A model generated the notes under the pieces. That model made no database searches, was not told the DNA's origin, and worked only from the letters and a program-made list of their open reading frames with translations. Source: a candidate division SR1 bacterium (lineage in GTDB: Bacteria; Patescibacteriota; Gracilibacteria; Absconditabacterales; Absconditicoccaceae). Taken from it: DNA of 50,784 nucleotides. A program made the position numbers and the translations under genes. Below are positions 14,468 through 19,600 of the stretch, piece by piece (positions within the stretch are counted from its first letter, which is position 1; every line of letters starts with the position of its first letter). The stretch lies in assembly GCA_007115995.1 (NCBI GenBank), contig SKJI01000009.1, positions 1-50,784 of the forward strand, read 5' to 3'.

Positions 14468-15520
14468 TTATAATTGTAAACGTTTTAAAGCGAGTTTGGC
14501 GTGCTCATTGAGTGGTTCAAGCTCAAGCACTTTCATATAATATTTGCTAGCATGTGTTGGTTCTGCTTGTTCTTCATGAAGTGTTCAAAGAGTGATAAGA
14601 TAGTTTATATTTGTTGGTCTTAGTTTACTGAGTAGTTCCATAACGCGTATTGCTTCTTTGAGTTCATTATGTTCGTAGTGTATTTCTACTAAACTTATCA
14701 AATATTTAGGATTATCAGGTTTGATTGCAATTGCTTTTTCTATCATCAATCTTCATGCATCAACATTTCCTTGCTGACGATAAATTTGTCATACTTGCCA
14801 GAGTGATTTGTGATGATTCGGATGTAGTGCGATAACTCTTTTGAGTAGTGAGAGAGCTTTGATATCATTTCATTGTTGAAAATAATAATTACTCAACATA
14901 TCCAAAAATTCATCATGATCAGGGTACATCGCCAATCATTCTACTAGTTTTTTTTCAAAAAAATCTAATTTACCTCTTTCTTTGTAGGTGAGTGCAGCAT
15001 ATTTCATCTGTTCCAAGATTTTGTGGTCTTTATCTTTGCGAATGTTTTCTTCAGGAGTATTGGTGTGTTGTTGCTTTTGAGAACTTTCTTCTTTTGTGTT
15101 GTTCTTTTTCTTGTCGTTTATTGGCGTTGTATTTTTAGTTTCTTGTTTTTGTTTTTCTTGTATACTGTGTTTCTGTTCTTTTTCACTATCTTCTGTGTTT
15201 TCACTAACTGTATTCTTGCGGTCTGTTACTGGTTGTGGTGATGTGTCTTTACTGACTTTTGTGCTTTCTTTCTTGCTCTGTGCATCTGTTTCTTGATCTA
15301 TTTGTTCAGCAGGTTGCTCGTCATTATGATGGTCCTGTTTTCGTGGTGTAGCATCTTCAAGACTAACATCTTCTTGAGGTATTGTCTTGGTGAGTGTAGA
15401 CCAAATACTTTTTAAGAATGCGCGTATTGGAGCATAGTATAATTTGATACCATAATAGACTGGTACTGCAATAAGTATAAGAGTCAGTATGAGCCATAAC
15501 CAAATTTCAAACGCTATCAT
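14468..15520 (-). CDS. Membrane-anchored TPR protein
   Basis: 350 residues. One N-terminal membrane segment (about 6-25), then a 120-residue low-complexity linker rich in Lys, Gln, Glu and Thr, then about five tetratricopeptide repeats from residue 170 to the end; helix B signatures such as A.SLLKRVIALHPN and AIKPDNPKYL are clear. TPRs are scaffolds, here probably facing the cytoplasm or cell-envelope side. Read with the standard code it would be cut at residue 194 by TGA. Lies 40 nt after the PSP1-like gene. Confidence 0.8.
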
Positions 15521-15560: not shown

Positions 15561-16418
15561 TTATGCAGTTTTTGTTGGTGCTTGTAGTGTACAGTTCTTC
15601 TTGTATTCATCAAGTGATAGTATAATTCGTTCACCATTGAATCATTCATTATTTTCACCTTGTCATCTCAATTTAATTTCTTGTGTAAGAAGATTATATC
15701 ACATACATTTAGTTTTGTTTCATTCAAAATAGACGAATGATCATTTTGATGGATATTTTTTCATTTCTTCTTCATAAAATTCTTTTTCAAATGCGAACGT
15801 ATGATTGTATTTTCATGATCGATCTTTGAGTCTTTCTGGATCTCTTCCATCGAGTTGTTGCACTTGTAACGATTCGTGTTCTACCATTGGTAATGGATGA
15901 CGGAAAATCGTGTACATCAATGGTAATCATGAGGTATCAAACCAGTTACGACGATCTGGATGGAGCTTGACTCTATCTCTCGATGAAACTTGATAGATAA
16001 AGAATTTTTTCTGAATTTTTTCTCTAAATGATCTTACAAAATCAGAGAAGTTATATCTTTCTTCTGCATAAAAATAAAAATATATATGATCTCATCTCAG
16101 AGTCGATCTTGCACAGATAGTTTTTGCATCTGGGAAACTTGCTTTGAAATCTTTTGAAAACACTATAAAGTGTTCATTGGCCATTTGTTGATTTTTCTTG
16201 AACTGTTCCATATCACTACTAGATAGTCGTTTTATAAACCTACTTTTTTTGTTGTTTGGTAGTGTATATCATAAATATTCTGCAAGATGTTCTTTTCATT
16301 CTTCATCTTTGTAGAGGAGCATATCTCATGCCTGAACTGTTTCAGACAGTATATCATCCTTTATTTCTATGTTTACAGGTTTATGGATCAACCAGTCTAT
16401 TGCGCTAAGAGTTTTCAT
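15561..16418 (-). CDS. PSP1/YaaT-like protein
   Basis: 285 residues. The central part matches the PSP1 C-terminal domain pattern: an IYFYFYAEERYNFSDFV segment, followed by a basic helix (REKIQKKFFIYQVSSRDRVKL) corresponding to the family's F.TRIEMRQIGVRDEAK block. The family's Cys-rich stretch that usually follows is not visible; HPLPMVEHESLQ occupies that place. Bacterial PSP1 proteins (YaaT) act in sporulation phosphorelay or RNA-degradation complexes in Firmicutes; here only the fold is inferred. ATG 16418 has no competing upstream ATG. First gene of the minus-strand cluster. Confidence 0.6.
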
Positions 16419-16550
16419 ACTGTTAGTATAATGGATTGCAACGAAAAAGCAAATGGAGTAAAGTAGGATTTGAAAAAAATCTTTTAAAATTTGCATGTGA
16501 AATTGTTTTTGGGTATAATCAAGGTGGTTTTTTATTGTTTATGGAATACT

Positions 16551-16891
16551 ATGACACCATTATCAAAATATTATCTCGATGAGATTAATCATGAAGCATA
16601 GATTAATGAACCTGAGGTGAGAAGGAAAATTAAACATATGGATTAGTTGTTATTTTTTGCAGGTGAATGCAGTAGAATATGAGATATCGAAACAGTATAT
16701 ACATGGTGTGAGAAAGCGTTAGAGTGTTTTAATGAATTTAAAAAATCTTATTTTTTTATATACGTCCCTACGGGACCATTCAGAAAGTTTGGTTAGCTTG
16801 TGCATAATTGGTATATAGGAAGTAAAAGATCCTAAGTATACTGATTATGCACACAACCTGCTAGTTATTTACAGATTATGCTCAGATCTAT
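16551..16891 (+). pseudogene. Decayed 5' region of the TPR-repeat gene
   Basis: The frame from ATG 16551 (MTPLSKYYLDEINHEA) is interrupted by TAG and another TAG, yet keeps protein-like text between them, including a TPR-like VYTWCEKALECF stretch and FIYVPTGPFRKFG before a third TAG. A further frame change follows, and a rough extra copy of the downstream repeat (GATCCTAAGTATACTGATTA) sits at about 16830. The pieces read best as the ruined N-terminal part of the large protein that follows, or of a neighbouring paralogue. No intact gene lies in 16419-16891. Confidence 0.5.
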
Positions 16892-17185
16892 ATGAAGATG
16901 TTGGAGTTGGGGATGGTGGATAAAAAGAATATCGAAGAGCATGCATTACTGAGTTTTGAGAAGGCGAAGGATCCAGATTATGCTCAGATCTATATGAAGA
17001 TGTTGGAATTGAGGGTGTTGGATAAAAAGAATATCGAAGAACATGCATCACTGAGTTTTGAGAAGGCGAACGATAATTCATATTATGCTCAGATCTATAT
17101 GAAGATGTTGGAGTTGGGGATGGTGGGTAAAAAGAATATCGAAGAGCATGCATCACTAAGTTTTGAGAATGCGAAGGATAATTTA
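16874..17185 (+). repeat. Three near-identical tandem repeats (102-105 bp)
   Basis: Units start at 16874, 16976 and 17081 and are nearly identical at DNA level; a fourth, diverged unit begins at 17186. Each encodes 34-35 residues of the form (D/Y)YAQIYMKMLEL...KKNIEEHA.LSFEKAKD, a two-helix TPR-like hairpin. High identity of the DNA, including silent positions, points to recent duplication or gene conversion. Confidence 0.85.
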
Positions 17186-19600
17186 TATTATGCTCGGATC
17201 TATATGAACATGTTGGAGTTGAGGTATGTAAACAGTAAAGATCTTCCACCAGAACAAGTTAACAAACAAATATTCCAACATTACAAAAATATTATCATTC
17301 AATATCCATGACTCAAAAATATCGTCATAAACCATCTCCACAATCCCGAGATACTCAATACGATCACGATACTCACTCAATCGCGAAATGCTTATCAGAT
17401 TCTTACTCATCCATGATGCAAAAAACTCCTAGAACAAAGACTATTCTACAAAAATATCACTCAAAATGATACAACAACATATCACAGAACACTGCTAGAC
17501 ATCTATAGCAAACTCCTCAAAACAATAAACGATGACGATCTTACTCAGGATCTAAAAAAATATGATCAATTTCTATCAAAATATGGACAGTATGAAGATA
17601 TGGAGTATTTCTTTGTAGATTCTCGTAGAGGGAAGATACGTTCGATTCATGATGCACTCGAGCAATATGACAGACTTGACAGTATCATTACATCACGAAC
17701 GAACAAATGATACACGACAGTAGCGATTTTTTTCAAAAATATCCTAGCTCAAGTAGGGCAGTCAGAAGTTGGCTATGAAGAGTTTAATAGTTTTTTGACC
17801 AGGTATGACGACAATATTCTGAGTACATGCAAAGATATCATAGATGGTCAAGAAATCACAGATCCTGAGTTTATACAGCTCTATAATCATTGTATGACCT
17901 TGCATCAACACAAGCAGCTCTATAACCAATATGGCAATCTTCGTCTTTTGACAAAACTACAAGATATAGTAGATAATCGTCAAGCGCTACAGACATTATC
18001 ACCACTACAACATAGTAGTAATCTAAGAGATCAGCAAGTCTATGATTACTTTCGTCAGGGCATTTTTAATCCTAGATCAAATAGTATGCTGTTTATAGAT
18101 CTGTATCAACATCCTAATAAGATATGGTCTATGAAAGATGGTCATGCAACAACTGATATTCATACTCAGTTACTACCTTCCCACTATACTGAACATGAAC
18201 ATATCGATTTATCGAGTGATGACCTGGTACATGCTCTCATTGATGGTAGTATCGATCAACTCAATTATTTCAAAGCATACCAACAACACTATATCATAGA
18301 CACAGACAATACTTTACTATGAACTATAGAAGATTTTATCAAGCAAAGCGATAAAAATTCTATCAGTAATCTTATCGTCAATTACAACCATACTGCAACA
18401 CAAAAGTGAGCAGCATCAATCTCTTATAAAAAATTCCACGCACAATGATTGGTAAGTCTAAGTCATGATCAAAAAAAGTACTTCATCAAACAAATCTTAA
18501 AAAAAACGTATCCTGAGAAAAAACTCACAGTACTTACTGCAATAATCTCTGCTATGAATGATCCATCGAGCTGGTTCAACGGTATAAACTGTGATAAGTT
18601 TGCAGATGGAAATGGAAAGAAAGTAGTCCAAATGATGAACCCACTCTCCAATGAGTTTACTATCAGCAAAGGACAAAAAATGCTCGTCAATAGTCGAATC
18701 ACACTCAATCAACAAACAAACCAATTATTTGAGAGTAATAAAAAAACTATTGAGTCATGAAATACTCTAGCAATTTCAGGCTTACCAGATCAATACACTA
18801 TCACTATAGATAATGTAGAAGCAATATGAAATCATGGTCTAGATGCAAAACTAGTACAACACATATATCAAAAATTCTTTGCTGACTATATAGCAAAACA
18901 CCCTAGATGACCCAAAGATATTGCTATCAACTCAAAACACATCCAGTGTGGTGCAAATCACAATAAAATAGACATCACACAATGATCGCAAGCAAATACA
19001 ACAGTAGCTGCTATTCCCAATAGCTATACAGATAATTATGGTGTGAATACAGGTACCATAGACTTACCTAAAATTAATCCTGAACAATTACATGAGAAAA
19101 TCGCCAAAGTATCATGATTACATCAGCTCTGACCAGAAGATATACGACCCGTTGCTCAGCTAGAAAAAAAAGTATATGGTTCTATCGGTGCTTCTGCAGG
19201 ATACCCTTCTATGAGATCTGAGATCATAGCATCACTGATCAACACTATCACTAAACAGAGAAGTAATCTCAGTTTTGTATCCTATGATCAATCCATGCTG
19301 AAGTGATATCTCCTTGCCTATGAACACAAAGATCATGTCTATATCTCAGATCGAGTAGCTCCAGATAACAGCAAGACAGCACTACAACTATGATATGCAT
19401 TACTTAGCGGATTAGAAGGTGTAGATAACTCTAAACCAATCATCTGTAAAGCAAGATCGAGTACCTCACTCCCTATTATCAATAAACTTATAGAAAAAAA
19501 GTGACGATCATATACAGAATCATCACAAAGTATTGGTAAAGAAACCTTTCCGATTCTTACGATTTATCGTGATCCTGAATTATCCCCTCCACTTCAGTAG
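16892..19600 (+). CDS. Large protein with TPR-like repeats and GNAT-like C-terminus
   Basis: 902 residues from ATG 16892 to TAG, with about 25 in-frame TGA. The in-frame TAG at 16862 sits inside what looks like an earlier repeat, so the natural N-terminus may be lost. Order: 3-4 TPR-like repeats (1-110), a long helical region, then a C-terminal third with GYLLAYEHKDHVYISDRVAP, an ALQLGYALLSGLEG helix and an ICKARSSTSLPIINKL segment, which together resemble the beta4-alpha3-beta5 core of GNAT acetyltransferases. That comparison is by eye only. No signal peptide or membrane segment. Precedes the yraN-like gene by 116 nt on the same strand. Function unknown. Confidence 0.6.

What the first reader, a model, noticed from the sequence alone, without database searches (positions are those of the whole stretch)
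16551..19600. TPR-repeat/GNAT-like giant with a ruined 5' end and near-identical repeats
Three almost identical 102-105 bp repeats, a fourth diverged and an upstream rough copy indicate active expansion or contraction. Stops and frame changes just upstream suggest that the N-terminal part has been lost. The C-terminal third looks GNAT-like. Repeat-driven variation plus a possible acetyltransferase end would fit a variable effector or interaction protein.
Basis: partly seen in the sequence, partly recalled or inferred. Interest (0 to 1): 0.6.

Follow-up and report, generated by a model that had tools for sequence, protein, structure and literature searches.

The report
Truncated repeat-acetyltransferase gene beside transposon debris

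Summary
Under this genome's code (TGA=Gly) one 902-aa frame runs 16892-19600 and begins with three near-identical 102-105 bp repeats plus a partial fourth. The C-terminus models as a GNAT fold. Full relatives exist but have no Pfam or NCBIfam name. They occur sporadically, mostly in candidate-phyla (CPR) genomes: 7/49 genomes of the same family, 10/353 of the class, and 28 loci in 84,980 species genomes.

The 'ruined N-terminus' is misread. Positions 16758-16877 are the terminus of a dispersed element with six further copies, all at contig ends. The frame just upstream (16647-16757) resembles the C-terminus of an IS1595-type transposase, not the N-terminus of any relative. The element ends where the repeats begin, so the protein was probably truncated there.

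The open frame has probably been kept since. It is nevertheless the longest branch of its clade, and the only one of the aligned copies covering that loop without a glycine in the putative CoA-binding loop. I favour a truncated, CoA-binding-impaired relic of a solenoid-plus-GNAT protein modifier. The near-identical repeats are a family trait, re-amplified separately in each lineage. A variable effector is not supported: no secretion signal, partner gene or strain variation was found.

The parts
16892..19600 (+). ORF of 902 aa under genetic code 25 (15 TGA=Gly, ends TAG): truncated repeat array, helical region, domain A, GNAT-like domain
   Evidence: six homologues at 28-34% identity in the same GTDB family
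16872..17224 (+). Tandem array: three units of 102/105 nt (34-35 aa) and a partial fourth; predicted two-helix repeats, block pLDDT about 82-92
   Evidence: equivalent of the 117-nt (39-aa) units of relatives L031-L034
16758..16877 (+). Terminal ~120 bp of a dispersed mobile element, 90-92% identical to copies at contig ends C12, C22, C32; long hairpin (z -4.4); ends ...CACACAACCTGCTAGTTATTTACA directly against the array
16647..16757 (+). Probable decayed C-terminal fragment of an IS1595/ISXO2-type transposase (FAGECSRIGDIETVYTWCEKALECFNEFKKSY), followed and preceded by TAG
   Evidence: score 54 against shuffles 26.9 +/- 4.7 for the G002 transposase, 38 against 24.0 +/- 4.4 for the own-genome copy; the Pfam profile itself does not match the fragment
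17579..18520 (+). Conserved all-helical region of the body
   Evidence: AlphaFold model; alignment A1
18527..19018 (+). Domain A: alpha/beta domain with family motif (here NGINCD...GKKVV...NP...DNVEA); strand-helix order resembles a second, degenerate GNAT (inference)
   Evidence: profile comparison with the C-terminal domain not significant
19091..19597 (+). C-terminal GNAT-fold domain; the loop glycine kept by the aligned relatives covering it is missing here (around 19373-19390, SKTALQL)

Best explanation
The gene is an old, N-terminally truncated and fast-evolving copy of an unnamed CPR protein family. Intact members are cytoplasmic-looking proteins of about 900-1800 aa. A long all-helical or tandem-repeat N-terminal part, probably a docking rod, leads to a conserved domain A and a C-terminal GNAT-fold domain. 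By anatomy I infer that intact members use the rod to hold a partner or substrate and the GNAT domain to transfer an acyl group to it. In this copy a mobile-element terminus, with a probable IS1595-type transposase relic behind it, abuts the repeat array, so any N-terminal cap and further repeats are gone and translation can start only inside the array. The CoA-binding loop has lost its glycine, so I infer weak or no catalysis, with at most a binding role left. The near-identical repeats come from lineage-specific duplication or homogenisation, a family habit. SHOWN: reading frame and code, repeats, homologues, mobile-element copies, loss of the glycine. MODELLED: the GNAT fold. INFERRED: docking role, acyl transfer, truncation by the element, loss of catalysis.
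For: Homologues L002-L007 over residues 230-876. Members in other CPR lineages, 28 loci in 84,980 genomes. GNAT fold with Naa10, Ard1 and diaminobutyrate acetyltransferase as best PDB matches, E 3e-4 to 1e-3, target TM 0.57-0.67. Relatives carry tandem arrays of up to 13 units of period 117 and an N-terminal cap. The element ends exactly at the array; its six other copies lie at contig ends with different flanks. The upstream frame matches the IS1595 transposase C-terminus and not the family's N-termini. The only loop without Gly among aligned members covering that loop. Longest branch of its clade: 64% of family-invariant columns kept against 77-100% for the others. A neutral simulation at 9% divergence, the distance of its element copy, expects about 8 new stops in this frame; none is seen.
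Against: GNAT is seen by fold and not by Pfam or NCBIfam for this copy; a sub-threshold Acetyltransf_1 match exists only in relatives. Acetyltransferase activity is not shown for any member. The 9% divergence of the element copy may predate insertion, which would weaken the argument for selection. The repeat array may be collapsed in the assembly. L004 and L007 lack near-identical repeats, so a long array is not obligatory in the clade.
Confidence: 0.62

Rival explanations
1. Plain pseudogene: the whole locus is decaying and the 902-codon frame is simply not yet broken.
For: Longest branch of the clade, loss of conserved residues in all three regions, lost loop glycine, truncated start with no recognisable ribosome site.
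Against: 902 codons with no TAA or TAG and no frameshift, beside an element copy 9% diverged from its relatives; about 8 new stops expected at that divergence. 79 of 123 otherwise invariant columns kept.
Confidence: 0.2
2. Functional short form: the truncated protein has a changed role, for example as a non-catalytic binding partner, with a start inside the array.
For: Frame kept open although cut; domain A residues retained at the same rate as the rest (34 of 53); repeat units still coherent after duplication.
Against: No expression data. Between repeat copies nonsynonymous codon changes outnumber synonymous ones (4:2, 4:1, 7:3), which is not what strong constraint on the repeats would give.
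Confidence: 0.13
3. Variable effector or interaction protein: phase- or length-variable repeats tune binding to a host or prey partner.
For: Near-identical repeats here and in relatives; array ends coincide with contig ends in four relative contigs, as expected for arrays too repetitive to assemble.
Against: No secretion signal seen, no conserved secretion neighbours, no effector or defence family match, no within-species data; repeat-length variation alone is not evidence of an effector.
Confidence: 0.05

Closest known systems
GNAT-fold acetyltransferases of the NAT type (Naa10/Ard1), which in NatA work with the helical-repeat subunit Naa15
   Same: GNAT fold, best Foldseek matches; in intact relatives a helical-repeat part accompanies the GNAT domain
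   Different: One chain instead of two subunits; 11-18% identity only; the window copy lacks the loop glycine; repeats are not TPR by Pfam; no evidence of N-terminal acetylation
Unnamed CPR family defined here (L014-L018, L031-L042, L103-L130)
   Same: Collinear helical body, domain A and GNAT-like end; HMM E-values of about 1e-56 to 1e-84 for the good matches outside its own GTDB family
   Different: Members outside the window's GTDB family have GNDTACCMPFGSGKNN where the code-25 clade has NGFNCD..HGKKVV; most have a different helical N-terminus; the window copy is truncated and lacks the loop Gly
IS1595/ISXO2-type transposase (PF12762), upstream debris only
   Same: 32-residue ungapped match to its C-terminal region; clear C-terminal IS1595 fragment at the C12 contig start and a weaker match at C50 in the same genome
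   Different: Fragment only, below Pfam detection; the abutting element end differs from the end of the genome's own IS1595 copies

Membership tests
Unnamed CPR solenoid/domain A/GNAT family | Full-length collinear similarity of the body to other members | tested here: met
   E 3e-54 to 6e-84 to six relatives over residues ~230-876
Unnamed CPR solenoid/domain A/GNAT family | Complete helical or repeat N-terminal part | tested here: not met
   Array begins directly at the mobile-element end; no cap upstream. Member by descent, but truncated
GNAT acetyltransferases | GNAT fold | tested here: met
   AlphaFold topology and Foldseek; model confidence moderate (mean pLDDT 74, from 7 sequences)
GNAT acetyltransferases | Glycine-containing acetyl-CoA pyrophosphate loop (motif A) | tested here: not met
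   SKTALQL here; aligned relatives covering the loop have a Gly there
GNAT acetyltransferases | Acetyl-CoA-dependent activity | not testable with these tools
   Needs purified protein
TPR proteins | Pfam TPR match in the repeat units | tested here: not met
   No TPR match for P0001 or for relatives' arrays; fold search of the array not significant. Two-helix repeats of 34-39 aa, so it may work like a TPR rod
IS1595 transposase (upstream fragment) | Match to PF12762 | tested here: inconclusive
   No Pfam match of the 49-aa fragment, but pairwise score 5.8 sd above shuffles to a bona fide member

The most novel reading that the evidence does not exclude
The window points to an undescribed family, sporadic across CPR phyla, of giant one-chain modifiers: an expandable helical rod, a conserved domain A with an invariant motif (GNDTACCMPFGSGKNN or NGFNCD..HGKKVV) that may be a second, degenerate GNAT or a separate catalytic unit, and a C-terminal GNAT. 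It spreads or is lost often enough to be present in only a few percent of genomes.
Probability: 0.4. Interest if true: 0.5.

Novelty: new variant of a known kind. Interest (0 to 1): 0.34.

Why it matters
The individual gene is probably a worn copy. The family behind it is conserved in sequence across CPR phyla, carries a near-invariant motif, has no Pfam or NCBIfam model and was not found in four literature searches. CPR bacteria have small genomes, so a 1000-1800 aa protein kept sporadically deserves an assay. The case also shows that stops and frame changes upstream of a repeat gene can be foreign debris and not the protein's own lost N-terminus.

Tried and rejected
1) TAG reassignment to rescue the upstream frame: rejected, TAG ends 9 of 36 window ORFs. 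2) 16551-16757 as the decayed N-terminal cap of this protein: rejected, scores not above shuffles against the N-termini or full chains of L033, L008, L035, L036, L037 and L038. 3) Upstream rough repeat copy: no HMM signal. 4) Paralogues in the own genome: none. 5) Element as IS200/605 with TnpB: PF07282 gives only a sub-threshold hit elsewhere. 6) Element end equal to the genome's own IS1595 end: rejected, those copies end ...CTAGACCC. 7) Phage origin of the family: no viral-contig relative for the code-25 alignment and no phage-record match for L037; the viral-contig and genome-contig searches with A2 could not be run, and pattern searches with glycine miss TGA-coded Gly. 8) Two GNAT domains by profile comparison: not significant. 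9) Defence or phage family: no significant match. 10) Literature: four searches found no description.

Full report
WHAT IS THERE. The window is contig C11 of a 1.0-Mb, 50-contig genome. Table 11 shatters its genes, while table 25 (TGA=Gly) gives long frames throughout, the code of Absconditabacteria/Gracilibacteria. Under it a 902-codon frame runs 16892-19600 with 15 TGA glycines. It opens with a tandem array, 16875-17221: three units of 102-105 nt, 93-95% identical to the reference copy, and a partial fourth. Its 'upstream rough copy' is not: a repeat HMM scores true units at 48-51 bits and finds nothing in any upstream frame.

THE 5' END. The stops are real, since TAG is used as a stop by 9 of 36 window ORFs. 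The sequence, however, is something else. A DNA search of the own genome showed that about 16759-16880 is a dispersed element, 90-92% identical at C32, C12 and C22. Flanks diverge immediately after ...CACACAACCTGCTAGTTATTTACA. A 16-nt core of that end occurs seven times in the genome: six copies near contig ends, and the window copy as the only internal one. The groups C12/C22/C32 and C7/C13/C37 may be the two ends of one element in three copies (inference). The window copy folds into a long hairpin, z -4.4, and is the diverged one: about 91% against 99% among the others. It ends exactly where the array begins.

Immediately upstream, 16647-16757, the frame FAGECSRIGDIETVYTWCEKALECFNEFKKSY matches the C-terminal part of an IS1595/ISXO2-type transposase present three times in a complete relative genome. 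That transposase matches PF12762 at 5e-27. The match scores 54 against 26.9 +/- 4.7 for shuffles. The own-genome IS1595 copy gives 38 against 24.0 +/- 4.4, while the protein's relatives do not score above shuffles. The fragment itself is below Pfam detection, so 'IS1595 relic' is probable and not certain. The origin of MTPLSKYYLDEINHEA remains unknown.

RELATIVES. There is no paralogue in the own genome. A search of the 49 genomes of the order, all of the same GTDB family, found six homologues at 28-34% identity. Profile searches found 10 of 353 genomes of the class and 6 of 380 genomes of the phylum, the window's own genome counted in each. A scan of 84,980 species genomes with the conserved motif of the code-11 members gave 28 loci, nearly all CPR MAGs: Magasanik-, Uhr-, Nomura-, Wolfe-, Kerfeld-, Moranii-, Peregrini-, Dojka-, Berkel- and Collierbacteria and others. 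It also gave one contig-end hit in a Bdellovibrionales MAG and one weak Omnitrophota hit. The pattern scan misses TGA-coded glycine, so it under-counts code-25 genomes. Neighbouring genes differ from genome to genome. The window protein groups with the six code-25 relatives at full support, on a long branch whose exact place within that group is unsure.

ANATOMY. The AlphaFold model of the body (mean pLDDT 74, pTM 0.71, seven sequences) shows a helical part, then domain A, then a GNAT-topology domain. The best PDB matches are Naa10, Ard1 and other GNAT enzymes. The array models as two-helix repeats with block pLDDT about 82-92, but no PDB match is significant and Pfam sees no TPR. Relatives carry units of about 39 aa: up to 13 copies of period 117 in L033, two intervals there being identical over 120 nt, and arrays running into contig ends in L031, L032, L034 and L043. 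Units resemble each other more within a lineage than between lineages, so the arrays are re-amplified or homogenised separately. Repeats of other periods occur in L109 and L116. Domain A carries the most conserved motif. Its strand and helix order resembles a second GNAT, but profile comparison does not confirm this.

STATE OF THIS COPY. It keeps 79 of 123 columns invariant in the other six code-25 members; the other members keep 77-100% in the same test. The loop glycine at the putative CoA-binding turn, kept by the aligned relatives covering that loop, is lost (SKTALQL). The frame nevertheless has no internal TAA or TAG. At 9% neutral divergence, the distance of the abutting element copy from its relatives, about 8 new stops would be expected. 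That holds only if the element diverged after insertion. Glycine is written TGA in 15 of 42 cases here against about two thirds in the other window genes listed (Fisher p 3e-5; the background counts were summed by hand), a hint of foreign origin or unusual history. Translation must start inside the array; the first ATG has no ribosome-binding motif, but few genes of this window have one.

MECHANISM. For intact members the anatomy suggests a helical rod that holds a partner and a GNAT domain that acylates it, comparable in principle to the Naa15-Naa10 pair but in one chain. This is inference. For the window copy, truncation plus loss of the loop glycine suggests a non-catalytic or failing protein. 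An effector role has no evidence.

VERDICT. The unnamed CPR family is the more interesting outcome; this member is a worn copy of it.

Noticed in passing
window 16758-16877; G000 C7, C12, C13, C22, C32, C37 contig ends: A multicopy mobile element (termini TGTARAT..CAGGTTGTGTGCATAA read inwards) breaks this assembly at six or more places; its body and transposase were not found.
   Followed up: partly
L087 (C12 start) and L088 (C50 start): C-terminal fragments of an IS1595-family transposase (a clear match at C12, a weak one at C50) with terminus ...CTAGACCC lie at contig starts, so a second IS family is probably also collapsed in this assembly.
   Followed up: partly
window 16892-19600: TGA is used for only 15 of 42 glycines, against about two thirds in the other long ORFs of the window (p 3e-5), suggesting foreign origin or unusual history.
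   Followed up: partly
window 14468-15520 (-): A neighbouring membrane-anchored protein with a charged linker and clear TPR repeats by Pfam; unrelated to the repeats studied here.
   Followed up: no
window 15561-16496 (-): Protein with a PSP1 C-terminal region and a weak NlpC/P60 match, an unusual pairing.
   Followed up: no
L126: A family member on a contig end assigned to a Bdellovibrionales MAG; either binning contamination or transfer into a predatory bacterium.
   Followed up: no
L033 5738-6292: By eye, a REP-type (Y1) transposase-like gene directly beside the longest repeat array of the family.
   Followed up: no
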